In this document: positions 1 through 31,272 of the stretch, one piece after another | Numbering within the stretch: the stretch's first letter is position 1 | Layout of the letters: each line of letters opens with the position of its first letter | NCBI GenBank assembly: GCA_965221205.1 | Contig: OZ244870.1 | Coordinates: 2,170,001 to 2,234,000, forward strand | Length of the DNA: 64,000 bases | Direction of reading: 5' to 3' | Source: CBDFMG01 sp965221205 [NCBI: bacterium] | GTDB lineage: Bacteria > SM23-31 | The notes under the pieces: model-generated | Told to the model about the DNA's origin: nothing | Seen by the model: the letters and a program-made list of their open reading frames with translations, nothing else | The model's database searches: none | Made by a program: the position numbers and the translations under genes

Positions 1-200
1 GTGAACCGATACTCTCCGAATATACCCTTCCTGGTGCGGGATATCTTGAGATAGACGCCTATGTCGTTGTTTACCTTAAAAGCGCTGCGAGAGACCACCT
101 CACCCTTCACCTTTAGCGCATTGATCGCTGTAAATCGCGGGTGTTTTGCGATCTGATTGAGAACTGCCCCGTGGTACAGATGTTCATCGCTGATCTTCAT
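1..200 (-). CDS. Conserved hypothetical protein, 3' end outside window
   Basis: Starts at an ATG (complement of 198-200) and stays open for 66 codons to the window edge, so only the N-terminal part is present. It begins MKISDEHLYHGAVL and continues with a regular pattern containing AINALKVKG and NNDIGVYLK. I have the impression of a widespread small uncharacterised family with this kind of start, but I cannot assign a function. It lies 34 nt downstream of the truncated TIR-like gene on the same strand, so the two were probably an operon. The short distance and absence of stops support it as a genuine gene. Confidence 0.6.
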   Translation of the reverse strand, partial: MKISDEHLYHGAVLNQIAKHPRFTAINALKVKGEVVSRSAFKVNNDIGVYLKISRTRKGIFGEYRF

Positions 201-234
201 CGCATTCTCCCGTGAGCGAAATCAATATCGTGCA

Positions 235-366
235 TTAGCAGAGCACCAGGGGTTGCCGCCTTCCCGCACAAGCACCGCGCGATCGTTTGATCTGACCGAC
301 GAACAGGTACTTGTCCATCAGATTGTTGTCGAAATCGAAACTGATGAACGCTCTTGGGTCGGCCAT
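235..366 (-). pseudogene. TIR-like (MTH538/DUF1863-type) protein, truncated
   Basis: The start is convincing: AAGGAG lies 8 nt before the ATG. The first 27 residues (ADPRAFISFDFDNN, then DKYLFVGQIK) match the opening beta-strand and helix of the MTH538/ThsB class of TIR-like proteins, which are normally 120-200 residues and often act in NAD-dependent defence. After about residue 28 the similarity stops and the frame ends at residue 43, so most of the domain is missing. An internal deletion explains this best, because the downstream gene is still in place. The gene is the last one before repeat R1. Family call is from motif recognition only. Confidence 0.5.
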
Positions 367-539
367 TGCTTCTTCTCCTTGTCTGGTGCATGTCCTCTCA
401 TTCTCCCACGTCCTCAAGACGGGAACCACAGGGCCGCGCGCTGAGAAAGACAGAAAACCGAAGCACTCAGACGATTCCGGGTTCTCTCAAAGAGCACGCC
501 CCCAACAGCCCCTATCATCTCATCAGATTTGATATGTTC

Positions 540-575
540 AATATACAAAACTTATTCTTGAAAGCAAACCACAAC
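540..575 (+). repeat. CRISPR-like 36-nt repeat R1
   Basis: Plus-strand consensus of the family starts AATATACAAAACTCATT and ends CTTGAAAGCAAACCACAAC. R1 has one substitution (CTTATT for CTCATT). It separates the TIR-like block from the methyltransferase block. Read on the minus strand the repeat begins GTTGTGGTTTGCTTTC, reminiscent of type II-C CRISPR repeats. Confidence 0.85.
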
Positions 576-580
576 TTCTG

Positions 581-766
581 CTACTCAAAAGCGACACACA
601 ATACCTTCGAAACATAGTGACAATACAGTCCAGCTTCAGCAACTTTGTTATTATTCTCTTCTGCTATTTCATCCTTGAGAAGTTGTAATTCGGCAGGGAG
701 TTGATTGGCGATATCTTTGTGCCACCGGGACAGCAGCTTTCGCTTGTGGAATAATCCCCACAACAA
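581..766 (-). CDS. Possible small protein, unrecognised
   Basis: A 61-codon frame opening at a TTG directly after a stop and ending 5 nt from repeat R1. The product is helical looking and charged (for example ELQLLKDEIAEENN) with three cysteines. There is no clear ribosome binding site, and no family is recognised. It could be the decayed tail of a larger gene carried between R1 and the methyltransferase. Everything else in 576-813 looks non-coding. Confidence 0.2.
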   Translation of the reverse strand: MLWGLFHKRKLLSRWHKDIANQLPAELQLLKDEIAEENNNKVAEAGLYCHYVSKVLCVAFE

Positions 767-813
767 TCATCACGCCTACTAATCAGACATATCAGCTGAG
801 GCCGAGGTCGCTC

Positions 814-1794
814 TCACTCATATGGGAACCTTAGTTTCTTTGGGCGAGGTGAATAGTTCCTAGGAGCTTCACACGCCCGTCTCACATGAAAAAGTATGTT
901 TTCGTCGAACCAGGTGATTTGATCAAGATCGGCGAACCGATCCCGCAGTCGCCGTTCGAAAATAACCATTGCTTCATCGAATTCCCCGTCTTCGTAGAGC
1001 GAAAACGTTGAATAGTGCCGGTTGTGAGCCTGATCCATTAACTGGTCGAGCTGCGCGCTGCGCTGATAGCGGAAGCACGTGGCAGAGCTGAAGAACAGAG
1101 ACTCGGTTCTTTCGATCGACCGATACACCGTCTCGAGCTCGATCAACCGGGCCTCCTTTTCGACGAATCCCGGGAAATATCGTCCCCAAATAGTACGTGC
1201 GTTTTGCGCTGGCAACCGGGTGTAAACGAACAGATGACCATCCTCCTTGAGGCCATCACACGTCACGCGGAAAAAGTCGTCGAGATCGAAATGATGGACC
1301 GCATTGAACGAAACGACACAATCGAAGGACTGCTCGCCGAGTTCGAGGGTCTCGACCCGCGTTTGTTTCGTCTCGAAGTGATCGATCCCATTGTCGCTCA
1401 GCAACTGCGCAGCTTTTCCCAGCATTGCCTGGTTGGTGTCGATGCAGGTCAAATGCAACCCGGGCAACGCATCAAACAATAGCAAGTCATACCTGCCCGC
1501 CCCGCACCCGATATCCGCCGCGCGAACAGACGAATATCCAGCGAACTCCTGGGCAATGTGATGTATCGGCTCGGGGTCGGTCGTCCGCACCTTGCGATAG
1601 ACGGCGGACACCCTGGTGAAGTGGTCCTGCATTTCGATAATCGACGTCACGGCCGGCCTTGGTTTCATGTACGATGCCGTCTTTGCCCCCTGCAGCAGGA
1701 TCGGACTGTCTGGACCAACGGTCAGCGAGTACTCGTCGCTCGATACGGGGATTCCCACGTCGGTTGTCGTAGGTTTGCGATTCTCTTTCTTCAT
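814..1794 (-). CDS. Class I SAM methyltransferase with a catalase-derived N-terminus
   Basis: 326 residues. The body is a Rossmann-fold SAM-dependent methyltransferase: motif I is ADIGCGAGR (residues 93-101), followed by an acidic loop (CIDTNQAML) and the post-motif segment VVSFNAVHHFD. The first 35 residues ([15 protein letters not shown], then LTVGPDSPILLQ) are not methyltransferase sequence; they are the N-terminus of the clade 3 catalase encoded at 3087-4541, differing at only three positions. Residue 55 (MQDHF) may be the original start. An AAAGGAG sits before the ATG in the shared leader. The gene therefore uses a leader, ribosome site and first 35 codons borrowed from the catalase gene. 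Substrate unknown. Confidence 0.75.
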   Translation of the reverse strand: MKKENRKPTTTDVGIPVSSDEYSLTVGPDSPILLQGAKTASYMKPRPAVTSIIEMQDHFTRVSAVYRKVRTTDPEPIHHIAQEFAGYSSVRAADIGCGAGRYDLLLFDALPGLHLTCIDTNQAMLGKAAQLLSDNGIDHFETKQTRVETLELGEQSFDCVVSFNAVHHFDLDDFFRVTCDGLKEDGHLFVYTRLPAQNARTIWGRYFPGFVEKEARLIELETVYRSIERTESLFFSSATCFRYQRSAQLDQLMDQAHNRHYSTFSLYEDGEFDEAMVIFERRLRDRFADLDQITWFDENILFHVRRACEAPRNYSPRPKKLRFPYE

Positions 1795-1951
1795 GGTGTG
1801 TCTCCTTTGCGTGTGGGTTGTGGGAGTGGGATCGGCCGCGTCCCCGAGGGTTCTGCGTGCCGATCAGCGCGTTTGGCTTCATCTGGGATTTCCATTGTTG
1901 CCTTCTTTGGTTTTTAATATACAAAACTCATTCTTGAAAGCAAACCACAAC
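1690..1951 (-). repeat. Duplicated leader module, copy 1 (methyltransferase)
   Basis: Near-identical, by eye over 90%, to 4437-4699. On the minus strand it runs from the end of repeat R2 through about 120 nt of untranslated leader, the AAAGGAG ribosome site and the first 35 codons. Homology ends abruptly after the LLQ codons. Same orientation in both copies; one outer boundary coincides with the 36-nt repeat. Confidence 0.9.
1916..1951 (+). repeat. CRISPR-like 36-nt repeat R2
   Basis: Matches the family consensus exactly over the 36 nt. It forms the upstream edge of the methyltransferase block and the left edge of the AT-rich lipoprotein block. Confidence 0.9.
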
Positions 1952-2129
1952 TAAACTTCTAATATGCCTTTCGTATTCCGTCCGAAATAAGCATTAGATA
2001 AGTAGATAGCAGGCATTTATTTATGAATAGGTTTTGAAAATTATCACACGAAGCAGAGCATGCGTGACGTTTTGCAAACCTTTGAAGTAGATTGTTGTTA
2101 CAATATTTAAATAAAAAAGTAGTGAAATA

Positions 2130-2514
2130 TTAGAGTCTGTATTGTACCCTAACACCCTGCCAACCAAATACAGGCCGTGAAGGATCTTGACCTTGTATCC
2201 TGATTCTTATTCTTCTTACTGCAAATATTGCAGCAGAGTCTAAACGGTCATATCCGGAAGTTTGTACAATTTTTGCATCTTTGACGGTTCCGTCACGTCT
2301 TATTGTTACAGCCACTTCTGTTATTCCCTGCGACTCTCTTTTCAAGCGCCCATTCAGGATACTTCAAGTCCAATGCTCCAAGATTAAGTATTCCAGTAGT
2401 CTTATTAGTCATAGTTAACCTTACTCTCGGTTTACTTGTTGAAGCGCAGTTTATTACCAACAATACAATAATAAGAATACTACTTGCATGATTTTTGGAA
2501 AATTTATTATTCAT
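2130..2514 (-). pseudogene. TonB C-terminal-domain lipoprotein, frameshifted
   Basis: The ATG is at 2514. The product starts MNNKFSKNHASSILII and has a lipobox ending VINC, so it is an outer- or inner-membrane lipoprotein. The remainder resembles a TonB C-terminal domain: KYPEWALEK, then in another frame GITEVAVTIRRDGTVKDAK, IVQTSGYDRLDSAA and a terminal VRVQYRL. The two frames join around 2336-2344, where the length (385 nt) implies one extra base. Either the gene has just decayed or the base is a sequencing error. TonB domains of this type pass energy to outer-membrane transporters or serve as envelope anchors. Unlike the other blocks this R2-R3 interval is as AT-rich as the chromosome to the right. 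Confidence 0.6.
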
Positions 2515-2753
2515 ATTTTTTTCCAAATTAGCTTGATTAGATATATTGTGGAAGTGTGACACATTAAACACCTTTAATATTGTTTTGTTAAGGAGGACTC
2601 GACTGTTCAAAAAACAGAACTTTTAAATGTATATTTAAATTCGTTAATGAATGAAGCACCTTTTCTGGGTATATGATTTTCGAACCATCAGAATAGAATT
2701 TGTTTTCTTAAAAATGGCAACTATTTGAACTCATTGAGGATTCGGTTAACAAA

Positions 2754-2789
2754 AATATACAAAATTTATTCTTGAAAGTAAACCACAAC
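2754..2789 (+). repeat. CRISPR-like 36-nt repeat R3 (diverged)
   Basis: Carries several substitutions from consensus (AAAATTTATTC for AAAACTCATTC and AAAGTAAACC for AAAGCAAACC), but the ends are conserved. Separates the AT-rich lipoprotein block from the GC-rich catalase block. Confidence 0.85.
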
Positions 2790-3086
2790 GTGACAATGCC
2801 TGGTCGAATGGTTGGTGGCCCGGGGCGCATCGGTTGACCACCGGGATGCCGGCGGATGGTGCAAAGCGGATGGTGCAAACTGGACATCGCGCGAGATGGG
2901 TGCGCTGGGCGTGGCTTTGTGGCTGGAGCGGAAGGAATCGTGACGGGGTCGACCCGACGGCCGTGGGGGTCGCGTGTCCCCCGGCACGGGCGCTGAACGA
3001 CGGTTCGAGTCCGGGGCGTCGCTCTCACCCGTCCGGGTTACGAGCGCGGTGACGCCCCAGACCTCTACCCGACAGGTTAGTGAGGA
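2790..3086. other. GC-rich non-coding 3' flank of the catalase gene
   Basis: About 300 nt between repeat R3 and the catalase stop codon. No convincing reading frame in either direction. It contains a tandem 14-nt duplication (GCGGATGGTGCAAA twice, near 2853-2880). Its composition is strongly GC-rich, in sharp contrast to the repeat it adjoins. Confidence 0.5.
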
Positions 3087-4541
3087 TTAACTGCCGCCGA
3101 TCCCCTTGGCAATGCGGTCGCCGGTCTTCTTGTCGATGTTTCGCCAGTACTCGATCGCGCGCTTCTGCATGGGTTTGGATACGCCGCCCTTGAGGTGACC
3201 GACAACGTTGGACACCAGCCGGTCGCGCTGCGCGGCGTCCATGACCGTGCGGATCAGCGTGCCGGCCTGGATGAAGTCGTCGTCGTCCTTGTGCGGCGTG
3301 TACGCGGCGCGCGTGAACTCGCCACTTGCGTCCCATTTCTCCATGTAGGGATAGCGCACTGGATCGGCCTGTGGACCACCCTTCGTATTGGGGGCGTAGA
3401 CCGGGTCGGAGACATTCTGGACCCGCATTGCTCCGTCCTTGCTGTAGCTGTGAACGGGTGCCTTCGGCGCGTTGACCGGAATCTGCTTGTAGTTCACGCC
3501 GAGCCGTGCCCGGTGGGCGTCGGCATAGGAGAACAACCGACCCAGCAGCATCTTGTCCGGGCTGGGACCGATGCCGGGAACAAGATTGTTGGGCTCGAAC
3601 GCAGCCTGCTCAATCTCGGTGTGGAAGTCCGTCGGGTTCCGGTTGAGCGTCAACTGGCCAACTTCGATCAACGGGTAGTCACCGTGCGGCCAGACCTTGG
3701 TCAGGTCGAACGGATTGAAGCGATAGGTCTTGGCTTCATCGAAGGGCATGATCTGCATCTTGAGCGTCCAGCTCGGGTACGTGCGCCGCACGATCGACTC
3801 GAATAGATCCCGGCGGTGGAAGTCGGCGTCCGAGCCGGCGGTCGTGTCAGCCTCCGCCTGGCTGAGGTATTCGATGCCCTGGTTGGTCTTGAAGTGATAC
3901 TTCACCCAGAACCGCTGCTCCTTCGCATTGACCCACATGTAGGTGTGGCTGGAGTAGCCGTTCATGTTCCGCCAGGTTCGAGGGATCCCGCGGTCTCCCA
4001 TCAGCCAGGTCACCTGGTGAGACGACTCGGGCGACAGCGTCCAGAAGTCCCACTGCATGTCGTTGTCGCGGAGGCCGGAATCGGCCCGGCGCTTCTGGGA
4101 ACGGATGAAGTGCTGGAACTTCATCGGGTCGCGGATGAAGAACACCGGCGTGTTGTTCCCCACCATGTCGTAGTTGCCCTCGGTGGTGTAGAACTTGAGG
4201 GCAAAACCCCGCGGGTCGCGCCAGGTATCCGGGCTGCCCTGCTCACCGGCCACCGACGAGAAGCGCAGCGCCGTGTCCGTCTTGGTGCCCTGCTGGAAGA
4301 CCGCGGCCTTGGTGTACATGCTGACGTTCTTGGTCACTCTGAAGTGGCCGAATGCACCGCCCCCCTTGGCATGCGGCTGCCGCTCGGCAATCCGCTCCCG
4401 GTTGAAGTTCGCCATCTGCTCGATGAGATAGTGATCCTGCAGCAGGATCGGACCGTCGGGACCAACGGTCAGTGAGTGCTCGTCGCTCGATACGGGGATT
4501 CCCGCGTCGGTTGTCGTAGGCTTGCGATTCTCTTTCTTCAC
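3087..4541 (-). CDS. katA: Monofunctional heme catalase (clade 3)
   Basis: 484 residues, full length for a small-subunit catalase that dismutates hydrogen peroxide. Catalytic His57 lies in [12 protein letters not shown], the distal Asn130 in VGNNTPVFF and the proximal heme-ligand Tyr339 in [15 protein letters not shown]. The NADPH-binding region and C-terminal helices are also present. The start is a GTG with AAAGGAG placed 7 nt upstream; the equivalent codon in the duplicated leader at 1794 is ATG. It occupies the whole R3-R4 interval as a single gene with its own leader and is visibly more GC-rich than the repeats on either side. Likely acquired by transfer; function should be intact. Confidence 0.93.
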
Positions 4542-4699
4542 GGTGTGTCTCCTTTGTGTGTGGGTTGTGGAGGTGGGACCGGCCGCGTCCCCGAGGGTTC
4601 TACGTGCCGATCAGCGCGTTTGGCTTCATCTGGGATTTCCATTGTTGCCTCCCTTGTTTTTAATATATACAAAACTCATTCTTGAAAGCAAACCACAAC
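4437..4699 (-). repeat. Duplicated leader module, copy 2 (catalase, native)
   Basis: The parental copy: here the leader continues in frame into genuine catalase sequence. It covers repeat R4, about 120 nt of leader, the ribosome site and 35 codons. Compare 1690-1951. Confidence 0.9.
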
Positions 4700-4831
4700 T
4701 AGTTTGATATAGTTTGATAAAGTTTTTTTAATATACAAAACTCATTCTTGAAAGCAAACCACAACCTTGATTTTTGTTTGTTTTCCCCATATATTACTAT
4801 ATAAAACTCATTCTTGAAAGCAAACCACAAC
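4664..4831 (+). CRISPR. Mini-array of three 36-nt repeats and two 30-nt spacers (R4-R6)
   Basis: Repeats at 4664-4699, 4730-4765 and 4796-4831; spacers at 4700-4729 and 4766-4795, each exactly 30 nt. The 66-nt period, the repeat length of 36 and the unrelated spacer sequences are what a type II CRISPR array shows. R4 has an extra AT step at its left edge, and R6 reads CTATATAAAAC at its left end. The first spacer is low-complexity, with TAGTTTGATA written twice. There is no cas gene, leader or tracrRNA candidate in the window, so activity cannot be inferred. Confidence 0.7.
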
Positions 4832-4832
4832 C

Positions 4833-4849
4833 AAGGAGATCAGACAATG
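4833..4849 (+). promoter_or_regulatory. Ribosome binding site abutting repeat R6
   Basis: AAGGAG at 4833-4838 begins one base after repeat R6 and is 8 nt from the ATG at 4847. It fixes the start of the TRAP protein gene. No room is left for a promoter between repeat and gene, so transcription must begin within or before the repeats. Confidence 0.75.
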
Positions 4850-5896
4850 GCGGCGCAATCAAGACGTTCGTTCCTTAAGGACAGTGTAGCCGCCACGCTC
4901 GGCACCGGTGCAGCCGTGCTCGCCGCACCTGCCGTGCAGAGTCAATCGCCTATACGCTGGCGGCTTCAGACCTACGCGGGCCCTGCACTTGCGGAACATG
5001 TCATCAAGCCGGCGGTTGACGCCTTCAACAAGGCGGCAAATGGCGAGATGGAGATCGAACTCTACTCGGCCGACCAGCTCGCGCCGACGAACGAACTGTT
5101 TGCCGCCCTGCAAAACGGGACGATCGATGCGGTGCAGTCCGACGACGACTCGATCGCCGCTCCAACCGATGTCTCGGTGTTCGGGGGGTACTTCCCGCTC
5201 GCCTTGCGCTACAGCCTGGATGTGCCGGTTCTGTTCAACCAGTACGGGCTGGGCGAAATCTGGGATGCAGCTTATTCGGAAGTGGGTGTCAAGTGGCTCT
5301 CCGCCGGCGCCTGGGATCCCTGCCATTTCGCGACCAAGGATCCGATCTGGAGCTTGGACGACCTCGCCGGTAAGCGGGTCTTTACATTTCCGACCGCAGG
5401 CCGGTTCCTTCAGCAGTTTGGCGTCGTTCCGGTCACACTGCCTTGGGAGGATGTCACAGCTGCCGTGCAGACCGGTGAGCTTGACGGCATTGCCTGGTCC
5501 GGCATCACGGAGGACTACACGGTAGGTTGGGCCGACATCACCGACTATTTCCTTACCAATAACATCTCCGGGGCCTGGATCGGCCACTTCTTCGCCAATG
5601 AGCGGCGCTGGAACGATCTGCCGGATCATCTCAAGACGTTGTGGCGTCTTGCGATGGATTCCTCTCATTACTACCGCCAATACTGGTATTGGGGTGGTGA
5701 GGCGCAGCTGCGTACCCAGGGCGCGAAAATGAAGCTCACGACCATTCCGGATGACGAATGGACGCAGGTCGAAGCCGCGGCCGTGAAGTTCTGGGACGGG
5801 ATTGCCGCGACCAGCGAACGCGCGGCGCAAGTCGTCGAGATCTTCCGCAACTACAACCGGATCATGAACGAGGCCGGCAAACCTTATCGGCATTAG
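4847..5896 (+). CDS. dctP: TRAP transporter substrate-binding protein (DctP family), Tat-exported
   Basis: 349 residues from the ATG that follows AAGGAG; an upstream TTG in the same frame falls inside repeat R6 and is not a credible start. The N-terminus carries a twin-arginine signal (SRRSFLKD, then a hydrophobic alanine-rich stretch ending AAPAVQSQ). The rest is a DctP/TAXI-like periplasmic binding fold, with a central segment DLAGKRVFTFPTAGRF and GELDGIAWSGI typical of the family. TRAP binding proteins deliver carboxylates or related solutes to DctQM permeases, but no permease gene is near, so it is an orphan here. GC-rich, unlike the repeat just before it. It is one of only two plus-strand frames in the first 15 kb. 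Confidence 0.85.
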   Translation: MAAQSRRSFLKDSVAATLGTGAAVLAAPAVQSQSPIRWRLQTYAGPALAEHVIKPAVDAFNKAANGEMEIELYSADQLAPTNELFAALQNGTIDAVQSDDDSIAAPTDVSVFGGYFPLALRYSLDVPVLFNQYGLGEIWDAAYSEVGVKWLSAGAWDPCHFATKDPIWSLDDLAGKRVFTFPTAGRFLQQFGVVPVTLPWEDVTAAVQTGELDGIAWSGITEDYTVGWADITDYFLTNNISGAWIGHFFANERRWNDLPDHLKTLWRLAMDSSHYYRQYWYWGGEAQLRTQGAKMKLTTIPDDEWTQVEAAAVKFWDGIAATSERAAQVVEIFRNYNRIMNEAGKPYRH

Positions 5897-5972
5897 CTCA
5901 GACCTAATCTGCCGCGCCATTGCGCTGGTCGGAGTCTTTACTACCCGAAACGGGGAAGAGAAGACGACGGCA

Positions 5973-6195
5973 ATGACTCAAGCACAGAAAGTGATCAAGA
6001 CGAAGGTTGGCCTCATGGAGTTGGCCAGGCAGGTGGGGAACGTGTCGCAGGCCTGCCAGGTTATGGGATAGAGTCGTGACAGCTTTTACCGCTTCAAGGA
6101 GTTGTACGAGAAGAGAGGCAAGGCGGCGTTAGCCGAGATGAGCCGGCGGAAACCGGTTCTGAAGAACCGGGTGGCTCCGAAGATCGAGACCCAAG
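5973..6195 (+). pseudogene. IS481-type transposase, N-terminal remnant with amber codon
   Basis: Begins MTQAQKVIKTKVGLMELA and continues VGNVSQACQVMG, then TAG (6069-6071) where the family has Tyr, then [30 protein letters not shown]. This is the helix-turn-helix N-terminus of IS481-family transposases, normally about 340 residues. Similarity ends near 6195 and the DDE catalytic part is absent. Double damage (internal stop and truncation) makes it a dead fragment. No terminal inverted repeats were identified. Confidence 0.75.
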
Positions 6196-6239
6196 GTCAG
6201 AATGGTGCGCATCTCACACTTCCGGTATCGGACCAGGCG

Positions 6240-7034
6240 TTACAGGCGCCACATGACCCAAAGTTGCGCCACGTTTTCGTCGGTCGGTATACCGAGCTTG
6301 TTCCGCCAGTACTGGTACTCGACGCCGAGGAAGAGCTGATTCGAATGGCCGGTCACGGCCTTGCCGAGATCCAAGCCCAACTGCGGTTGCGCGAGAATCC
6401 ACCTAGGCAAAGACAGACCGAATTCATCCACGGTTGCCCCGATGTACTCCGCATGTCCGGTGAACCAGAACGACTGGTTTCCGACATCGAAGACGGCGCC
6501 CCAGCTCGCGTCGATCATGAAGCTGTCGGACGTCCGAGGCGCGCCGCCGCGGTCGAGCCCGTTGCTGTCGTCGATGAAGGCAGTAAAATCGGTATTGAAG
6601 AAGACGAAACCGGGAATGTCCAACGAGAAACGCGCTCCCGGCAAGTACTTGAGCACGTCGGCATCGCTGTCGAAGTTGATCCCGCCGATGAGTGCGATAT
6701 CCCGGAGGGGACCGGCGCCGACGGTTCAACCGCTCAACTTGGAGAAGCTCAGGATCGGGTACCACTCGCCGTAGAATTCCTTGTCGTTGAAGCTGTCGAC
6801 GGCTTGATCGTCCAGGAAGTCGATGAAGACGAAGCTGTCGCCCAGCGACCAGCTCGACGCCTGCTGAACGGTCAGAATCGAGGTGTAGTGCCGTTCTCCG
6901 GAGAACGGATTCGCGAGCCGGCCGTACTGGTAGTGGAACTCGGTCTGGACAACCGTGCTCGAGGGCGCCGCGAACAGAACCGCGGCAACGAGGGCGACGA
7001 GCCAGACGACACGAAGTGATGGCATATTCTTCAT
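6240..7034 (-). pseudogene. Tsx-like outer-membrane channel protein with one in-frame stop
   Basis: A 264-codon frame interrupted only by a TGA at 6726-6728 (codon 103), between SFSKLSG and [15 protein letters not shown]. The N-terminus has a signal peptide ([17 protein letters not shown]). The body alternates like a beta-barrel and ends [10 protein letters not shown]. Features such as [16 protein letters not shown] and [13 protein letters not shown] recall nucleoside-specific Tsx channels. Both halves are in the same frame and equally well preserved, so this is a point nonsense mutation or a base-call error. It lies tail to tail with the transposase remnant. Confidence 0.65.
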
Positions 7035-7144
7035 GCCGGAAGGATAAAAACGAAGGACCAAAAGCCCCGACCTGAATGACGCTCGGAGACGACAACAAGG
7101 TCGACGCAATCGAGAAACCCCCGGCCCAAACAACGCGCGAGACG

Positions 7145-7355
7145 TCAGCCGACATCCGGCGCCACGTTGAAAACGACGGCAAACACGCTCTCCCGGGGGT
7201 GATTGGTGCGGGGCAGGCTGCACAGCGCCATCATCCGCGCCATGAAACCGAGATCGGGGTCCGCCCTGGGGCGAGGCTTCGCGGAGCGCCTTCGCCGGCC
7301 CGTCCAGATCGGCCAAGGCTTCGGCAATGGGAACCAACCCTTGTTTACGCTCCAT
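7145..7355 (-). pseudogene. Plasmid replication initiator RepA remnant
   Basis: AAGGAG precedes the ATG at 7355. The first 30 codons (ERKQGLVPIAEALADLDG, KALREASPQ) and, after a frame change, ADPDLGFMARMMALCSLPRTN match my recollection of the N-terminus of RepA-type plasmid replication proteins. The stretch normally between these two blocks is deleted, and everything after SLPRTN (where winged-helix DNA-binding parts should follow) is missing. It sits directly downstream of the defence-like operon on the same strand, which points to a plasmid origin for that segment. Confidence 0.55.
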
Positions 7356-7378
7356 GATTTCTCCTTATTTCTGCATGG

Positions 7379-8287
7379 TCAAGAATCCAGAACGGTCTTG
7401 GGACCTTTTCCAACACTCGCTTCGATGCGATGTTGGAGTCGTGTGGCAAGGTCCTCGGGGTTTTCCCAGTCGATGGTGTTGTATTGCCGAATGTCGAAGT
7501 GAAGATCCTGCATATCGCCCTTCCTGCAAGTCCATATCACCGGCAGGTCCAGGCCAAGGGCAAACCCGGCCTCGAAATAGACGCCGTTTCGGTGCCCGGT
7601 GAAATCAGCGACAACGAAAAATGCCGTCCGTATGTGGGCGATGATTTCGTCATCGATGCGGTTCGTATGCTCTACTCTATCTATGCGGACCGGGTCGTAA
7701 CCCGCTTTCAGAACACCGACCTGAAACCCCTTATCGTAGGCGGGCTCAAGATCTTTGTGGAACGCCATGGCAACGAACCCCTTATCGGATTGTGCAACTG
7801 GACGGGTCAGTTCGTTGGCAGCAATGTATCCTTTCGGTAGAACGCAGTAAATTTCGGCGTCAGCAACCTCATTCACATAGTCCCTATCCAACAACAGCTT
7901 CTCAAGAAAGTAAACTTCGCCAGCATTCTGCGAATATGTTGCCGCAACGAATCTTGGCTCGGTGATGTCGACCATGGCATTCAATTCCAATTTATTTTGT
8001 CCCTGCAGCATCTCAAGCAACAGGCGTTCGGCCCGTTCGGCTATGGTCGGGAGGGGGCGAGCCGATATCTTCTTCAGCACATCGCCTGAAATCGTTGGAA
8101 CCGTGCCGGTCCTATTCTGATCGGACACCCAGCCGGAAATCTTTGCCAGGTCCGCTTTGTCGCTCTTTTCGATGATTGACCAAGCCTCAGTCGTCATCAG
8201 CAGCTTTAATTCTCTGCAACGCGGACAGTGCGGTTGGCCCGTTTCAGACGGCGTCCCGCATATTCTACAGGGGTATTGGTTTGGCAT
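7379..8287 (-). CDS. Zinc-ribbon plus nucleoside-deoxyribosyltransferase/TIR-like putative defence effector
   Basis: 302 residues. A four-cysteine ribbon lies at Cys7, Cys10, Cys21 and Cys24. A linker follows, then a C-terminal domain from about residue 165: KGFVAMAFHKDLEPAYDKGF, DDEIIAHIRTAFFVVADFTG, NGVYFEAGFALGLDLPVIW. That pattern is the nucleoside 2-deoxyribosyltransferase/TIR-like fold that binds nucleotides and in several immune systems degrades NAD or nucleotide pools. The start overlaps the end of the ATPase gene by 23 nt, with a ribosome site (GGGAG) inside that gene, so the two are translationally linked. Inference: ATPase senses, this protein executes. Function is not proven. Confidence 0.65.
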   Translation of the reverse strand: MPNQYPCRICGTPSETGQPHCPRCRELKLLMTTEAWSIIEKSDKADLAKISGWVSDQNRTGTVPTISGDVLKKISARPLPTIAERAERLLLEMLQGQNKLELNAMVDITEPRFVAATYSQNAGEVYFLEKLLLDRDYVNEVADAEIYCVLPKGYIAANELTRPVAQSDKGFVAMAFHKDLEPAYDKGFQVGVLKAGYDPVRIDRVEHTNRIDDEIIAHIRTAFFVVADFTGHRNGVYFEAGFALGLDLPVIWTCRKGDMQDLHFDIRQYNTIDWENPEDLATRLQHRIEASVGKGPKTVLDS

Positions 8288-9980
8288 GGCTTATTCTCCC
8301 GTGCGCTTCAAGTTTGCTGGAAAGGTCACCGATACGTTGTTTGAGTTTTTGAGCCAGATCATCATCTTTGCGAATTAGAGTGACGACCATTTGTTCGTAG
8401 TCCTTTCTTTTAGGACATGTTAGGGCTTTTGCAATCGCATCGAACACGCTGGTATCGACGAGCGGATAGCGAGCGACAAGATCGTCCAGTTTTCCGTCAG
8501 CAGCGAGTTTCCTGAAGCGCTCCAACTCATCATGACAGGGATTCTTGACGCACACAGAGATCTTTGAAGACGCATCGGTGTCCATCAGTTCATTCCAGTG
8601 TGGGAGCTGCGACAGCATCGAACTGCGCACTGTGCGTTCGCACCGCCGGGCGGCCATCCTTTCGGCGAGGCCGTTCTGCTTCAGAGCATCTAGAGCGTTT
8701 TTTTTCGCCAACTCGATCATTTTATCAGCTTTGTACCCCAGGGACTCCGCTTGCCTGTGAGCGACTGCCGCAATGGCGTCCGAGCAATAGTAGAGCGATT
8801 CAACCGAGCACACGCCCAAAGCGAACACGCCCTTGTCAGCAAGCTTCCGTATTTTCTCTTCGGGTCGGTCGTCTCTGTCAATAAGGCCAAACGCTTTGAC
8901 ATGATGGAGGTCGCAGGAGGGCTCTCGCAGCCCGATCACCGCTCTTTCGACGTCGATGCAATTTCCCTTGGGTACCACCGAAAGACGAGGGAATAGGGCA
9001 CTGTAGAACGGCAGATCCAGGCTGCTGGAGCCGCCTTCTACGAAAAGGATTCTTTCTCTGGCCCCTAGGATGGCGAGCTTGAGTTCCTCGGGCAATTCCG
9101 TATTCGGCTCAAGGACTTCGACATCCCACGCCTTGGCTATATCACCATTCCACGTGCACGATCGGACCTTAAGGATACGCGCGTCCGGGTTAGCAACCGG
9201 CAAAGCGATCTCATGCGTTGAGACGACGAACGAGCAATCCTTACGCTGGTTAAACAACGCTGACAGGAAGGGCACGATGATGGCTCGATGAAGATGCCGT
9301 TCCGGCTCATCGATCAGGAACACGGTGGCTGGCTTAGCGGTAACTACGTTGGCTGCCATGATGACAGCACTCCGCTCCCCATCCGACATTTTCTCAATGC
9401 TAAATTTCCCGCCGCCGTTCCCGTGTTGCGCAAGAATCTCTTCTCCTTTGGAGTTTTCAAGCGAAACCGTCAGCGTCCCGAGCGCAAGCAATTCGTTGAT
9501 CTGTGCGAAAGGAGACGCCGATTCTGAGGAAACTCTAAGGGCGTCTTTGAAATCCCAGTCGTCGAAGTGACGCGTGATGGATCTGGCCCGCTCGTTGTCG
9601 AAGTGACGCGTGATGGATCTGGCCCGCTCGTTCTCGTCGGCAACCAAGTCGAACAAGACAGCCGCCTGCATTTCGCCAGAGTTGTGATCCTTCCATCGAG
9701 TGTCCGGGCGGCCGTTATAAATCTTGGAGTGCTTGTCAACTTCTCTGCGGTTATGCAGAGTGAGGGTAATGTTTCCCGATTCGAGCCATGTCTGTCTGTG
9801 AGCGGTAATCCACCTAATATGCGGCCTGTTCGCTTGCGACGAAGCAAGGTTTTGAAGCAACGCTGATTTTCCGGAACCGTTGGCTCCGACCATAAAGAGT
9901 CGGTCACCGAGTCGGTCACCAGCTTCAAGAGTTATCTGAAGCGGCTGCTTGCCTGAAGTTCTAGGGATGTTCCAATCCAT
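8265..9980 (-). CDS. AAA/ABC-type ATPase with C-terminal DUF4435 (TOPRIM-like) domain
   Basis: 571 residues. Walker A is GANGSGKS (32-39), the signature region is KMSDGERSAVIMAAN and Walker B is TVFLIDEPERHLH, as in SMC/OLD-like ATPases. The C-terminal half (from ERILFVEGGSSSLDL through GLIDRDDRP and SVESLYY) is DUF4435, a TOPRIM-like module seen in OLD-type and other defence proteins. The start has GGGGAGG 9 nt upstream. It forms a two-gene operon with the NDT-like effector. It carries an in-frame 36-bp tandem duplication at 9562-9633. It occupies the right end of the R6-R7 block, 66 nt from repeat R7. Antiphage role is inferred from architecture and pairing. Confidence 0.75.
   Translation of the reverse strand: MDWNIPRTSGKQPLQITLEAGDRLGDRLFMVGANGSGKSALLQNLASSQANRPHIRWITAHRQTWLESGNITLTLHNRREVDKHSKIYNGRPDTRWKDHNSGEMQAAVLFDLVADENERARSITRHFDNERARSITRHFDDWDFKDALRVSSESASPFAQINELLALGTLTVSLENSKGEEILAQHGNGGGKFSIEKMSDGERSAVIMAANVVTAKPATVFLIDEPERHLHRAIIVPFLSALFNQRKDCSFVVSTHEIALPVANPDARILKVRSCTWNGDIAKAWDVEVLEPNTELPEELKLAILGARERILFVEGGSSSLDLPFYSALFPRLSVVPKGNCIDVERAVIGLREPSCDLHHVKAFGLIDRDDRPEEKIRKLADKGVFALGVCSVESLYYCSDAIAAVAHRQAESLGYKADKMIELAKKNALDALKQNGLAERMAARRCERTVRSSMLSQLPHWNELMDTDASSKISVCVKNPCHDELERFRKLAADGKLDDLVARYPLVDTSVFDAIAKALTCPKRKDYEQMVVTLIRKDDDLAQKLKQRIGDLSSKLEAHGRISHAKPIPL
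9562..9633 (-). repeat. Perfect in-frame 36-bp tandem duplication inside the ATPase gene
   Basis: Two copies at 9562-9597 and 9598-9633. Each encodes the 12 residues NERARSITRHFD, so the protein has an extra helical turn set between the Walker A region and the signature motif. A smaller 12-nt duplication (GDRL twice) lies near 9898-9923. Confidence 0.9.
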
Positions 9981-10045
9981 ACGAGAGATCCTCCCCGAAG
10001 GTATGTAAAAGTCACCTGGAGGTCGTCTTTGCTCTTTGAAAACTC

Positions 10046-10147
10046 AATATACAAAACTCATTCTTGAAAGCAAACCATAACAATACAGTTTGAAACGTTA
10101 TGAACTGTTTTAATATACAGCATTTATTCTTGAAAGCAAGCCGCAAC
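10046..10147 (+). CRISPR. Two 36-nt repeats with one 30-nt spacer (R7-R8)
   Basis: Repeats 10046-10081 (one change: CCATAAC for CCACAAC) and 10112-10147 (several changes, CAGCATTTATTC and AAGCCGCAAC); spacer 10082-10111, exactly 30 nt. The spacer contains ACAGTT and AACTGT as a spaced inverted repeat. Same orientation and geometry as R4-R6, 5.2 kb away. Confidence 0.7.
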
Positions 10148-10172
10148 CGGAGAGATGTTCCTCCGTGCGGTC

Positions 10173-11174
10173 TCAGAGGCGGCATTTGAGGTTGACAGTC
10201 ACCGTGTAGTATGCGAGGCCATCGAACTCAAAGGTTGAGGTGAACGGATCGACGCCGTCCGCCTGGACCGGAATGTGGCTGCGAACAAGGTTGAAGGCTG
10301 CTTCCTTACTGAGGCTGCCGAACGTGGCCCAGCGTGCCTTCGCGCCGACCGAGGCGCGGTCTGTCAAGGCGTAATCGATCCCGGTCATCAACTGGACGCC
10401 GAAGACGTTCTGGCGCACCGGCATATCAATGAAGGAGACCGTGCCGGCGGCTGCCTGTTTTGCTTCGTCTGGCCAGTCAGGGTCGAAGGCGATCTGCAGG
10501 TACTCCACCTCCGGCTTGCGGACGAACATGCTCCAGTAGTCCAGGTTGGTGCGGGCCCAGCCGATTCCGGCGCCTGCGTATGGCGTCCAGCGCGAGTCGT
10601 TCACGAAGTCGTAGTACGCGTTGGCGAAGAGCTGGTGGGCGTTGTAGCTGCGGATCTCCTCGTACGGCGGTTCCTCGCTGCTCCACTCGGTGTTTTTGTT
10701 CTGCTGCACCGCGTTCGATGTCGCGCTGACCGCCGCCCTGTCGCTGCCGTGGTACCGGTTGAGGTACTCCACTTCGAAGCGCAGCGTCCCGGCCATATAT
10801 CCGACGCTGAGGCCACCTGCGAAGCCGCCGCCGGTCTCGAACTCGTTGACGCGGACCGACGATCCCGGGGTGTTGTTGAGGCAGGCCGGGTCCGCGGCGA
10901 TGGCGGCCGGGACCAGGAATGACGGATACAGCAGCCGGTCGCAGCGGCTCGGGTGGGTGACGCCGCTTCTGCGCGACGTCACGGTTGAGGCGTTCGCAAC
11001 GCCCACTTCAAGGCCGACGTAGAAGCCGGACCGATCCTCCTGTGCGCCAGCGGTGCCCGCCGCGCCGAGCAGGCAGAGGCCCACCGCGGCAACGCGGCAG
11101 CACTTATGCCTGAAAGCAAACCATAACCGGAGAGATGTGTCGCCGCGCGGCTTAGACGCCAGCATCTTCCTCAC
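10173..11174 (-). CDS. Outer-membrane beta-barrel protein (porin-like)
   Basis: 333 residues from a GTG that overlaps the TGA of the upstream lipoprotein gene (GTGA), indicating coupled translation; an ATG follows three codons later. The apparent signal peptide is RVAAVGLCLLGAAGTAGAQ, then repeated amphipathic strands (SGFYVGLEVG, YDFVNDSRWTPYAGAGIG) and a C-terminal strand TVTVNLKCRL. It is a diverged relative of the barrels at 12471 and 14389. Oddly the ~26 residues before the signal peptide (including LWFAFRHKCC) are encoded by a decayed copy of the 36-nt repeat, so the reading frame has run through a former block boundary. The stop lies 26 nt from repeat R8. Confidence 0.75.
   Translation of the reverse strand: MRKMLASKPRGDTSLRLWFAFRHKCCRVAAVGLCLLGAAGTAGAQEDRSGFYVGLEVGVANASTVTSRRSGVTHPSRCDRLLYPSFLVPAAIAADPACLNNTPGSSVRVNEFETGGGFAGGLSVGYMAGTLRFEVEYLNRYHGSDRAAVSATSNAVQQNKNTEWSSEEPPYEEIRSYNAHQLFANAYYDFVNDSRWTPYAGAGIGWARTNLDYWSMFVRKPEVEYLQIAFDPDWPDEAKQAAAGTVSFIDMPVRQNVFGVQLMTGIDYALTDRASVGAKARWATFGSLSKEAAFNLVRSHIPVQADGVDPFTSTFEFDGLAYYTVTVNLKCRL
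11103..11127 (+). repeat. Decayed CRISPR-like repeat R9 inside a coding frame
   Basis: TGAAAGCAAACCATAAC (11111-11127) matches the right half of the repeat with one change; the left half is only weakly recognisable. It is followed by CGGAGAGATGT, the same 11 nt that follow repeat R8. Confidence 0.65.
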
Positions 11175-12064
11175 TCTACAGTAATGGTGTTTTCGCTGGA
11201 GTATTTTCCTTTGGCCCCGTCGATAGTAACCTCTGCGACCAGTCTGTATTCACCCGGGCTGTCCGGGGAGTAGGAGCACACCCCCCCTGTTCGCTCCGTG
11301 CCTGGGATGTCAGCCCATGGGTCGGTTGAACTGTCTCTCCTCTGCCATTTTGAATTGTGGGTCGTGTAGGTAACCCCACCTATGTTCTGGTTATCCAGAT
11401 TGAGGCATTCCGCGAAGGAGAAGAGACCATATTGGATCATGCCGGGCGATACTCGAAGCCCTGTCAGCGGCGTGTAGACGTCAGCTGGAGGAGGTGTCAT
11501 CGTAGAGTCAGCTGGAGGAGGTGTTGGTGCAGGTGGAGGCGTGGGCGGAGGCGGAGGCGTGGACGCACTTACAGTAATGGTGTTTTCGCTGGAGTATTTT
11601 CCTTTGGCCCCGTCGATAGTAATTTCTGCGACCAGTCTGTATTCACCCGGGCTGTCCGGGGAGTAGGAGCACACCCCTGTTTGCTCCGTGCCTGGGATGT
11701 CAGCCCATGGGTCGGTTGAACTGTCTCTCCTCTGCCATTTTGAATTGTGGGTCGTGTAGGTAACCCCACCTATGTTCTGGTTATCCAGATTGAGGCATTC
11801 CGCGAAGGAGAAGAGACCATATTGGATCATGCCGGGCGATACTCGAAGCCCTGTCAGCGGCGTGTAGACGTCAGCCTGGGGGGGCTCAGGTGCAGGTGTG
11901 GGCTCAGGTGCAGGTGTGGGCGCAGGTGCAGGTGTGGGCGCAGGTGCAGGTGTGGGCGCCATCGGAGATGAAGACTCGTCTCCACACCCGACCACCAGCA
12001 TCATCACGACAATCAAAATAAATGAAAACACAAAATGATTAGAATCTTTATTTTTTATATTCAT
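11171..12064 (-). CDS. Lipoprotein with proline linker and two near-identical domains
   Basis: 297 residues from the ATG at 12064 (MNIKNKDSNHF); lipobox MLVVGC puts the modified Cys at 27. An APTPAP-rich linker follows, then two copies of a ~100-residue beta domain (start DVYTPLTGLRVSPGMIQYG, end GKYSSENTITV) separated by a PPPPTPPPAPTPPP linker. The domain contains two Cys, probably a disulfide, and resembles Ig-like or bacterial adhesin modules, though I do not recognise a named family. The two copies are almost identical in DNA, so duplication is recent. Overlaps the downstream barrel gene by GTGA; the pair is probably a surface complex. Confidence 0.7.
   Translation of the reverse strand: MNIKNKDSNHFVFSFILIVVMMLVVGCGDESSSPMAPTPAPAPTPAPAPTPAPEPTPAPEPPQADVYTPLTGLRVSPGMIQYGLFSFAECLNLDNQNIGGVTYTTHNSKWQRRDSSTDPWADIPGTEQTGVCSYSPDSPGEYRLVAEITIDGAKGKYSSENTITVSASTPPPPPTPPPAPTPPPADSTMTPPPADVYTPLTGLRVSPGMIQYGLFSFAECLNLDNQNIGGVTYTTHNSKWQRRDSSTDPWADIPGTERTGGVCSYSPDSPGEYRLVAEVTIDGAKGKYSSENTITVE
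11178..11875 (-). repeat. Direct 305-bp repeats encoding the duplicated domain
   Basis: Copies at 11178-11485 and 11571-11875, offset 393 nt, differing by a 3-nt insertion and a handful of substitutions. A recent tandem domain duplication capable of length variation by recombination. Confidence 0.9.
11887..11958 (-). repeat. 18-bp minisatellite encoding APTPAP linker
   Basis: Four imperfect copies of GGTGCAGGTGTGGGCGCA (with GCTC variants) encode the proline linker of the lipoprotein. Such in-frame minisatellites commonly vary in copy number. Confidence 0.8.
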
Positions 12065-12143
12065 TTGTTTTATCTTTCTATTGTTTTTTAAACATACAAA
12101 ATACAAAAACAAGAGGGGAGGTAAAAGGTCGTGGCCCCCTCGG

Positions 12144-12470
12144 AACACGAGGCGTTACCGCTCGATGGCGGTGCTGCACCGGACTCTTGATGGCGGGGAC
12201 CGATACCGATATGGATAACAACCGTTTTCTATTCTATTTCTACTCGTCTGGTACATATTTTTCTCCGAATCATGCGACGCGAGAAAGAGGCAAGCACCGC
12301 ATAGTACTAAAAGATTGAAAAAAGCAACGTAACCGGAGCGGGGAGATAGATCGAAAACAGCTCTCGGTCACGATCCCGCTCCAATTTGTGAGAAGTAATT
12401 CTGCGAAACCGATTCCTCTGGTTAAGCCCAAGATGCAGGAATCAATTTAACTGGGGCAAACCACGACCCC
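12144..12470 (-). other. Duplicated spacer, copy A (downstream of OMP-A)
   Basis: No gene. Alignable by eye to 14141-14388 through its whole length, with a ~55-nt insertion near 12408-12465 just before the OMP-A stop. At its left end GAACACGAGGCGTTACCG (12144-12161) recurs at 13596-13613, at the 3' end of the PDC-domain gene. The PDC-type gene present after copy B is missing here. Confidence 0.75.
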
Positions 12471-13448
12471 TTAGAAGTGGCACTTCAGGTTTACGCCGAC
12501 CCCGAACATTCCGATACTCTCGAACGCGGCCGAGCCCGACACGGGTTCACTTTCGTCGCGTCGAAGATTGGGAACGTGACCCCGCAGCGGAGGATCCTCG
12601 AGAATAACGTCATCACTGAAGGAACCGAAGGAGACCCAGCGGCCCTTCACACCAAGAGACATCGATTCCGTCAGCGCGTAATCGACACCCCAAAGCACCT
12701 GAAAACCAACGGGCGTGTCGTTGAGTACGGTCTCTGCGACGCTGGCGGTTCCAGCCAGATTCTGGCGGATTTCTTGAGCGTTGGGCAGACCTTCGCCCGT
12801 GGTGATCCTGTTTGCATCGAAGTTTCTCGCCCACATTAACCCATACTCCATGTGGGTGAAACCGATCCCGCCACCGACCCCGAGATAGGGTGTGAAGCGG
12901 CTGTTGTTGACGAAGTCGAAATACAGATTTCCGAACAGGTTATGAGAGGTGATGCTGGATATCCGGTCCACCGCTCTCACAATTTCTTGAGCGAGCTTGT
13001 CGCCGCTCTCGCCCTCCGCAGAGTGAACATCGGAAGTCTGATCATACTCCGAGTTCCGGAAGAAGTACTCCAACTCCAGGCGGAGCTGCCCCAGAACATT
13101 GTCCGGGTATCTCTCCTGGAAGCTATATCCCACCGCCGCTCCAGCCAGAAGGCCCGTAACCCTGTCGAAATCGTTCTTCCAATCTCCAGTTGACCCCCGC
13201 GGGCCCGTGCAGTTATAACTCCCGTATCCCGAAACTGTCTCGACCATCGCGTACATTGGATTGATAAACTCATCGCACACGCTGGCCCGGTCGTTGTGGC
13301 TTACGGTGAAATCCAGTGGTGAGGCGACGTGGAAGCCCCATTCGCTGCTCAGATAAAACCCCGATCCCGTCTGCTGGGCCTGCGCCAGCCGCGATACACA
13401 CGCCCACGCTGCGATGATGCCCATGAACAATAAAACAGTACGGTTCAT
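12471..13448 (-). CDS. Outer-membrane beta-barrel protein, tandem copy A
   Basis: 325 residues from the ATG at 13448 (MNRTVLLFMGIIAAW), with a GAGGAC ribosome site. The signal peptide is cleaved after SRLAQAQ. Strand-rich body with TGLLAGAAVGYSFQERYPD, YFDFVNNSRFTPYLGVGGG and C-terminal GVGVNLKCHF ending in Phe, the usual barrel-assembly signal. It is about 90% identical to the gene at 14389-15378; differences cluster near the N-terminal loop (residues 35-75) and the C-terminal quarter. Likely an OmpA/OmpW-sized eight-strand barrel; role unknown. Confidence 0.8.
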   Translation of the reverse strand: MNRTVLLFMGIIAAWACVSRLAQAQQTGSGFYLSSEWGFHVASPLDFTVSHNDRASVCDEFINPMYAMVETVSGYGSYNCTGPRGSTGDWKNDFDRVTGLLAGAAVGYSFQERYPDNVLGQLRLELEYFFRNSEYDQTSDVHSAEGESGDKLAQEIVRAVDRISSITSHNLFGNLYFDFVNNSRFTPYLGVGGGIGFTHMEYGLMWARNFDANRITTGEGLPNAQEIRQNLAGTASVAETVLNDTPVGFQVLWGVDYALTESMSLGVKGRWVSFGSFSDDVILEDPPLRGHVPNLRRDESEPVSGSAAFESIGMFGVGVNLKCHF

Positions 13449-13608
13449 ACGTCCTCTGTATCTTCCCCAGTGAAGAGGAGGATCTAGTGTACACTTCCGG
13501 GACGGGCTTCGTAAATCGATTCTTTCTTGATAGTCATCGACTGGACTCTGGACGACTTTGTTGCATGGATATTCACTATTCACTCATGTCTCCTTAGAAC
13601 ACGAGGCG

Positions 13609-14121: not shown

Positions 14122-14140
14122 CGTATCTCCCCATATAACA

Positions 14141-31254: not shown

Positions 31255-31272
31255 ATGATGGAGGGCAATCAC

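What the first reader, a model, noticed from the sequence alone, without database searches (positions are those of the whole stretch)
540..11127. Genes carried as kilobase-long intervals between CRISPR-like 36-nt repeats
Nine same-orientation copies of one 36-nt repeat occur in 10.6 kb. Three adjacent intervals are exactly 30 nt, the others 0.8-5.2 kb with whole genes (methyltransferase, lipoprotein, catalase, TRAP protein plus defence-like operon, barrel protein). Most intervals are GC-rich while the repeats are AT-rich, and gene leaders begin directly at the repeat. This looks like a gene-capture array built on CRISPR-type repeats, or a CRISPR array into which genes recombined. Neither an integron nor an ordinary CRISPR array explains it.
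Basis: partly seen in the sequence, partly recalled or inferred. Interest (0 to 1): 0.92.

Follow-up and report, generated by a model that had tools for sequence, protein, structure and literature searches.

The report
CRISPR array interrupted by whole genes
A bacterial CRISPR array, normally a string of short virus fragments between identical repeats, here holds blocks of whole genes between its repeats, probably by recombination over a long time, with the repeats possibly acting as promoters for some of the genes.

Summary
The nine same-strand 36-nt copies are real (540-11127). They are type II-C CRISPR repeats: 36-nt relatives (28/36 and 24/36 identical) with the same 65-66-nt period lie beside cas2-cas1-cas9 in two Marinimicrobia-phylum genomes, and an 18-nt core shared at 16-17 of 18 bases forms regular arrays in 12 of 296 Bacteroidota genomes. 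Three of eight intervals are 30-nt spacers; five are 0.8-5.2 kb gene blocks. None of 406 intervals in those 14 ordinary arrays exceeds 150 nt. A dedicated gene-capture system is not shown: no cas gene or recombinase was recognised in 44 window ORFs and fragments scanned, and two duplications reach beyond the repeat, which Cas1-Cas2 insertion alone would not make. One published parallel met: an 899-bp plasmid fragment between two repeats of a Sulfolobus array (PMC4390879). Most likely repeat-mediated recombination in a defence island; expression from repeat-borne promoters is possible but weakly supported. New variant of a known kind; one contig, reads unseen, host unplaced.

The parts
540..575 (-). 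CRISPR repeat copy (1 mismatch), lowest-coordinate copy seen
576..1915 (-). long interval 1: methyltransferase gene fused to a copied catalase leader
814..1794 (-). 326-aa protein: about 36 residues as in the catalase N-terminus, then a class I methyltransferase (PF08242, PF13649)
   Evidence: 226-bp duplication 1689-1914 / 4436-4661, 93%
1916..1951 (-). CRISPR repeat copy (0 mismatches)
1952..2753 (-). long interval 2: AT-rich (34% GC), TonB C-terminal-like gene split over two frames
2754..2789 (-). CRISPR repeat copy (3 mismatches); composition steps from 34% to 65% GC here
2790..4663 (-). long interval 3: catalase block (62% GC)
3087..4541 (-). intact catalase, 484 aa (PF00199 E 9e-183)
   Evidence: 76% identical to an Erwinia plasmid catalase over residues 1-481
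4664..4699 (-). CRISPR repeat copy (1 mismatch)
4700..4729 (-). 30-nt spacer 1
   Evidence: exact 22-mer absent from IMG/VR
4730..4765 (-). CRISPR repeat copy (0 mismatches)
4766..4795 (-). 30-nt spacer 2
   Evidence: exact 24-mer absent from IMG/VR
4796..4831 (-). CRISPR repeat copy (2 mismatches)
4832..10045 (.). long interval 4 (5.2 kb): TRAP solute-binding gene (+), transposase-like remnant and broken barrel-like gene (both read by eye; no Pfam match for the barrel pieces), TIR effector and AriAB-like ATPase (-)
4847..5896 (+). TRAP-type solute-binding protein (PF03480); AAGGAG begins 1 nt and ATG 15 nt from the repeat edge
7379..8287 (-). TIR effector-like protein (PADLOC Effector TIR E 3e-13)
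8265..9980 (-). AAA ATPase, weak DUF4435 match, PADLOC AriAB E 3.5e-52
10046..10081 (-). CRISPR repeat copy (1 mismatch)
10082..10111 (-). 30-nt spacer 3 (imperfect palindrome by eye)
   Evidence: exact 23-mer absent from IMG/VR
10112..10147 (-). CRISPR repeat copy (6 mismatches)
10148..11091 (-). long interval 5: outer-membrane beta-barrel gene (PF13505)
11092..11127 (-). degenerate repeat copy (11 mismatches, 5' half kept) inside the barrel reading frame

Best explanation
This is a genuine but heavily rearranged type II-C CRISPR array in a defence island. Shown: the repeat identity, the 36+30 architecture of what is left, and kilobase gene blocks between repeats. Inferred: the blocks entered one after another by recombination at the repeats, for example a single crossover between an array repeat and a matching repeat unit on incoming circular DNA, followed by block duplication and partial deletion, rather than by a dedicated capture enzyme. 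Inferred and weakly supported: because II-C repeats carry an outward promoter, a block that lands in the right orientation can be transcribed from the repeat, which may help it to be kept. The 30-nt spacers are leftovers of normal immunity.
For: Repeat identity: 36-nt relatives in G338 (24/36) and G244 (28/36; 0 of 100,000 shuffles reach 28), period 65-66 nt, each beside Cas2, type II Cas1 and Cas9; an 18-nt core shared at 16-17 of 18 bases with arrays in 12 of 296 Bacteroidota genomes, one array checked beside Cas9, Cas1 and Cas2. The Riemerella II-C anti-repeat TGAAAGCAATTCACAA (PMC5006608, passages) differs from the complement of the window core at 2 of 16 bases. Control: 389 intervals in 12 arrays, 388 of 74-77 nt and one of 150; 12 in G244 and 5 in G338, all 65-66. 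Blocks: with the repeat letters left out, composition steps from 34% to 65% GC at the 2754 repeat (support -1 to +27 nt, dlogL 58.6). Recombination: a stretch of repeat plus 226 bp is duplicated at 93% and a 53-nt stretch of repeat and 3' UTR at 81%. Orientation: in all 5 long intervals the gene next to the repeat's 3' end reads away from it (1 in 32 by chance; 1 in 16 without the barrel, whose frame runs through its repeat). II-C repeats carry promoters (PMC10309648, PMC12080349, passages). Precedent: 899-bp plasmid fragment between two repeats of S. solfataricus locus F, and changes in CRISPR loci inferred to arise by recombination between repeats (PMC4390879, passages).
Against: No donor molecule carrying a block and a matching repeat was found. 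Composition supports separate origins only at 2754 and, 4-46 nt to one side, at 1916; it is weak at 540 and at 10046-10147 and absent at 4664-4831, where both sides are 61% GC. The sharper breaks at 4825, 10136 and 10035 mostly reflect the AT-rich repeats and spacers themselves. Promoter geometry TTTG-N19-TAnnTT is kept in 4 of 9 copies, and of the five gene-proximal copies only in those at 1916 and 10046; the copy at the barrel has lost it. The 10-mer TTTGTATATT occurs nowhere in window 19-64 kb. Rising degeneracy toward high coordinates is only a trend (rho 0.60, p 0.085). Cas genes and an anti-repeat are not in view. Some genes are broken. No reads or close relatives were available.
Confidence: 0.47

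Rival explanations
1. Aberrant CRISPR adaptation: Cas1-Cas2 integrated kilobase-long DNA instead of 30-nt prespacers, duplicating the repeat each time, so the array works as a gene-capture device.
For: Blocks lie directly between repeat edges, as such insertion predicts. Related arrays carry Cas1-Cas2 beside the repeat.
Against: Two duplications reach 226 bp and about 23 nt beyond the repeat. None of 406 intervals in 14 related arrays is longer than 150 nt. The 5.2-kb block holds several genes and remnants. No cas1/cas2 was recognised in the window.
Confidence: 0.14
2. Tandem accretion: mobilisable elements or islands integrated site-specifically into a repeat that resembles their attachment site, leaving direct repeats between blocks.
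For: Direct repeats in one orientation between blocks are what tandem accretion gives (recalled; PMC5704250 seen in a search listing only). A transposase-like remnant lies in the 5.2-kb block (by eye).
Against: No integrase or recombinase was recognised in 44 window ORFs and fragments scanned (not all ORFs). The repeat is explained as a CRISPR repeat and three intervals are exactly 30 nt.
Confidence: 0.1
3. Assembly artefact: unrelated sequences from a metagenome joined at the shared CRISPR repeat.
For: The source is unknown and no reads are available. GC-rich blocks sit beside a region of 28-49% GC per kb, and proteins point to different phyla.
Against: The longest exact match between any two repeat-bearing stretches is 48 nt, short for a final short-read k-mer (recalled). 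Copies differ by 0-11 bases from the consensus and the duplicated leaders by 7%. Several independent wrong joins would be needed.
Confidence: 0.14
4. The repeat is a dispersed promoter element of the host, not a CRISPR repeat; the 30-nt spacing is incidental.
For: TTTG-N19-TAnnTT geometry in 4 of 9 copies; a phage motif with the same TTTGTATATT end.
Against: Three intervals are exactly 30 nt, and the 36-nt sequence and 66-nt period are those of cas9-linked arrays. TTTGTATATT is absent from window 19-64 kb.
Confidence: 0.05

Closest known systems
Type II-C CRISPR-Cas arrays of the Marinimicrobia phylum (G338, G244) and of Bacteroidota
   Same: Repeat of the same family: 36 nt with 65-66-nt period in G338 (24/36) and G244 (28/36), 16-17 of 18 core bases in Bacteroidota; II-C repeats carry promoters (PMC10309648, PMC12080349 passages)
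   Different: Those arrays are regular (406 intervals, none above 150 nt), those checked lie beside cas genes, and the Bacteroidota ones have a 75-77-nt period; here 5 of 8 intervals are 0.8-5.2 kb and no cas gene is in view
899-bp pNOB8-like plasmid fragment between two repeats of CRISPR locus F, Sulfolobus solfataricus (PMC4390879, passages)
   Same: Foreign DNA of near-gene size between two CRISPR repeats; recombination between repeats proposed for changes in CRISPR loci
   Different: One fragment in an archaeal array; here five blocks in one II-C array, several with intact genes
Flavobacterium psychrophilum II-C array split by IS256 (PMC10309648, passages)
   Same: II-C array interrupted by foreign DNA
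   Different: IS insertion with target-site duplication; here the blocks run from repeat to repeat (IS ends were not searched for)
Integron cassette arrays
   Same: Genes of mixed composition between repeated sites
   Different: Repeat has no attC-type core or fold, no integron integrase recognised, multi-gene and decayed blocks
Tandem accretion of integrative elements
   Same: Blocks separated by direct repeats
   Different: No recombinase recognised; the repeat is a CRISPR repeat

Membership tests
Type II-C CRISPR array | Repeat sequence of a cas9-linked II-C array | tested here: met
   28/36 and 24/36 to repeats beside Cas2-Cas1-Cas9 in G244 and G338; 18-nt core at 16-17 of 18 in arrays of 12 of 296 Bacteroidota genomes, one checked beside Cas9-Cas1-Cas2
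Type II-C CRISPR array | Short spacers of constant length (about 30 nt) | tested here: inconclusive
   3 of 8 intervals are exactly 30 nt, 5 of 8 are 802-5214 nt
Type II-C CRISPR array | cas9, cas1, cas2 nearby, no csn2/cas4 | tested here: inconclusive
   No Cas family in 44 window ORFs and fragments scanned; in G338 and G244 cas2 lies on the side that here is cut off after 539 nt
Type II-C CRISPR array | tracrRNA anti-repeat | tested here: inconclusive
   17-nt core with up to 3 mismatches occurs only in the nine repeats; it may lie outside the window or differ more
Type II-C CRISPR array | Promoter in each repeat | tested here: inconclusive
   TTTG-N19-TAnnTT in 4 of 9 copies; motif end absent from window 19-64 kb; no expression data
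Type II-C CRISPR array | Spacers match mobile elements | tested here: inconclusive
   Exact 22-24-mers of the 3 spacers absent from IMG/VR; at least 8 mismatches in phage contig G001
Integron cassette array | attC core GTTRRRY (recalled) and imperfect palindrome | tested here: not met
   Repeat starts GTTGTGG; repeat fold z -0.27; four stretches covering 5 of 9 copies gave z -0.51, -0.03, 0.87 and -2.74, the last (10022-10171) holding two copies, a spacer and the barrel 3' UTR
Integron cassette array | Integron integrase nearby | tested here: inconclusive
   None in the 44 ORFs and fragments scanned; may lie outside the window
Tandem accretion of integrative elements | Recombinase gene in or beside an element | tested here: inconclusive
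   None recognised in the ORFs scanned; a transposase-like remnant by eye
Casposon or Cas1-mediated long-DNA insertion | Duplication limited to the target (the repeat) | tested here: not met
   Two duplications extend 226 bp and about 23 nt beyond the repeat; the other blocks were not informative
Casposon or Cas1-mediated long-DNA insertion | cas1 in or beside the array | tested here: inconclusive
   None recognised in the window; the window ends near the side where it is expected

The most novel reading that the evidence does not exclude
The array has become a gene-capture and expression platform: long DNA is inserted at CRISPR repeats, by the adaptation machinery or by recombination with repeat-bearing mobile elements, and is expressed from repeat-borne promoters, so that an immune-memory locus doubles as a cassette array for defence and stress genes.
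Probability: 0.15. Interest if true: 0.9.

Novelty: new variant of a known kind. Interest (0 to 1): 0.6.

Why it matters
CRISPR arrays are treated as regular because Cas1-Cas2 measures its inserts. An array in which most intervals are gene-sized would mean that arrays can also gather, and perhaps express, genes, either by simple recombination at a conserved, promoter-bearing repeat or by relaxed adaptation. Array finders that demand regular spacing (recalled) would miss such loci, so they could be commoner than known; a directed search would tell.

Tried and rejected
The exact repeat was not found elsewhere: 24-mer with four R positions, 0 exact matches in GTDB genome contigs and two in one phage contig of IMG/VR; 3' 23-mer, 0 in IMG/VR; blastn in phages and plasmids gave only weak partial matches, best E 0.03; 24-mer with up to 3 mismatches, 0 of 296 Bacteroidota genomes. 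In 245 genomes of the Marinimicrobia phylum the 18-nt core with up to 1 mismatch matched 6, of which one (G338) as an array and five as single sites. Four further Cas9 genes were found there: of their loci, G244 has a 36-nt array, while in the fetched pieces of G359, G293 and G284 repeat finder showed no CRISPR array.

Host placement is unsettled. The VPS10-like protein has best relatives at 47%, spread over many phyla. The M28 peptidase is 60% identical to one in an Aminicenantes genome. The DUF5916 protein matched 38 of 199 genomes of that genome's phylum but 0 of 149 of the Marinimicrobia phylum at E 1e-120. The SusC-like receptor matched 1 of 27 genomes at E 1e-60, the Marinimicrobia one, and 5 of 245 of its phylum at 1e-130, best 37%, and 0 of 6 KSB1-phylum genomes at 1e-160.

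Solitary repeats of the G338 and G244 kinds: exact 22-mers, 0 in IMG/VR. A CTGCAG at the catalase/methyltransferase junction was noted and not pursued. A TIR-like reading of the fragment at 235-366 was dropped (0 Pfam families), as was calling 39138-40877 SusD (0 families at 1e-5). Literature searches, in a PMC-only library. The only description of foreign DNA of this size between two CRISPR repeats that I met there is PMC4390879. I read passages of five papers (PMC5006608, PMC12080349, PMC10309648, PMC10651486, PMC4390879); all others were listings.

For these I lowered the best explanation from 0.50 to 0.47 and raised the artefact rival from 0.13 to 0.14.
Full report
Observation. The finding is right in its main point. 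Nine copies of one 36-nt sequence lie on one strand between 540 and 11127; every other place in the 64-kb window has 13 or more mismatches. No place in 40 shuffles of bases 1-15500 came within 11 mismatches, against nine observed. The intervals are 1340, 802, 1874, 30, 30, 5214, 30 and 944 nt. Only two of the 30-nt intervals are adjacent, and the ninth copy is half degenerate and lies inside a reading frame.

What the repeat is. Read on the minus strand it is GTTGTGGTTTGCTTTCAAGAATGAGTTTTGTATATT. The pattern GTTGTGRWTTGCTTTCAA matches 15 of 296 Bacteroidota genomes, 12 as arrays and 3 as single sites; the arrays read GTTGTGATTT or GTTGTGAATT, so they share 17 or 16 of the window's first 18 bases. 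I fetched those 12: 389 intervals, 388 of 74-77 nt and one of 150. One of the arrays was checked and lies beside Cas9, Cas1 and Cas2. A published II-C anti-repeat from Riemerella fits the same core but for 2 of 16 bases (PMC5006608, passages).

Closest arrays. In the phylum of Candidatus Marinimicrobia UBA2125, 245 genomes were searched. G338 has six identical 36-nt repeats plus a half-degenerate terminal one, at 65-66-nt period, beside a 1039-aa Cas9, a type II Cas1 and Cas2. G244 has 13 repeats at 65-66 nt beside Cas2, type II Cas1 and Cas9. The window repeat is identical to theirs at 24 and 28 of 36 positions; none of 100,000 shuffles reached 28. I therefore treat the element as a type II-C CRISPR repeat and the three 30-nt intervals as spacers. 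Exact 22-24-mers of the spacers have no match in IMG/VR.

The long intervals. They hold a methyltransferase, a TonB-like gene split over two frames, a catalase, a 5.2-kb block (TRAP solute-binding gene, a transposase-like remnant and a broken barrel-like gene read by eye, a TIR effector and an AriAB-like ATPase), and an outer-membrane barrel gene. GC is 53, 34, 62, 56 and 65%. A first change-point test put breaks at or near the repeats, but the AT-rich repeats and spacers help it. With the repeats left out, the step at 2754 stays sharp (34% to 65% GC, support -1 to +27 nt), that at 1916 is strong but 4-46 nt to one side, those at 540 and 10046-10147 are weak, and there is none at 4664-4831. 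So composition shows that the TonB-like block is of other origin than its neighbours; it does not separate the GC-rich blocks from one another. Their tetranucleotide usage correlates mostly better among themselves (0.34-0.66) than with 19-64 kb (0.24-0.46), with one pair (0.34) below some host values.

History. The stretch from repeat 1916 through 226 bp downstream is repeated at 93% next to repeat 4664; it carries the catalase leader and about 36 codons, which in the first copy are fused to the methyltransferase. That this N-terminus belongs to the catalase is shown by a 76% match over residues 1-481. Around the barrel gene a 53-nt stretch of repeat and 3' UTR is repeated at 81%. These are duplications of blocks that contain a repeat, not of the repeat alone, and point to recombination, at least for these two places.

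Promoters. In II-C systems the repeats carry promoters (PMC12080349, PMC10309648, passages). In all five long intervals the gene next to the repeat's 3' end reads away from it: 1 in 32 by chance, 1 in 16 if the barrel is left out because its frame runs through its repeat. The geometry TTTG-N19-TAnnTT is kept in 4 of 9 copies (540, 1916, 4730, 10046), so in only two of the five gene-proximal ones. The motif end TTTGTATATT occurs 4 times on the plus strand of two phage pieces against 0.16 expected, but not once in window 19-64 kb. Transcription from the repeats is thus possible and unproven.

Setting. The flanks hold further defence genes (PDC-S18 candidate at 16558-17511, restriction-enzyme fragment at 18425-18862). 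No Cas protein, integrase or recombinase was recognised in 44 window ORFs and fragments; antisense ORFs and most ORFs under 150 aa were not scanned. No separate anti-repeat was seen with up to 3 mismatches. By analogy with G338 and G244, cas2 would lie to the left of repeat 540, where the window offers only 539 nt. The host is not placed: different proteins point to different phyla.

Artefact check. The longest exact match between any two repeat-bearing stretches is 48 nt and the copies differ among themselves, so joins at one identical repeat would not give this picture. Reads were not available, so the risk remains.

Verdict. A real, rearranged II-C array with gene blocks between its repeats is well supported; how the blocks entered, and whether the repeats express them, is inferred. 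The nearest published case I met is a single 899-bp plasmid fragment between two repeats of a Sulfolobus array (PMC4390879, passages). I rate it a new variant of a known kind.

Noticed in passing
phage contig IMGVR_UViG_3300033141_003544 (G001), 7875-7898 and 81701-81724: Two solitary 24-nt copies of the 5' part of this repeat, both shortly upstream of a ribosome-binding site and ATG, the second directly behind a stop codon. The two variants (G or A at position 11) equal the first 24 nt of window copies 540 and 2754. They look like solitary repeat units, candidates for RNA anti-CRISPRs (PMC10651486, passages). They were the only IMG/VR matches of the pattern.
   Followed up: partly
window 814-1794: Methyltransferase fused in frame behind about 36 residues of the neighbouring catalase's N-terminus; the junction lies at a CTGCAG.
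   Followed up: partly
window 12138-15453: Tandem duplication of a barrel-plus-sensor unit of about 1.95 kb, matching stretches 88-95% alike; barrel 10173-11174 is a 28% relative.
   Followed up: partly
window 11171-12148: Protein with two nearly identical parts (98% at DNA level) joined by proline/alanine-rich linkers.
   Followed up: no
window 15595-15606: Run of 12 G close to the step from GC-rich to AT-rich sequence: possible phase-variation tract or assembly weak point.
   Followed up: no
window 16558-17511 and 18425-18862: PDC-S18 candidate defence gene and a HaeIII-like restriction enzyme fragment beside the array.
   Followed up: no
window 31255-32541 and 47191-47997: Two UxuA/TIM-barrel genes 94% identical over 265 residues, the second shorter at its start.
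   Followed up: no
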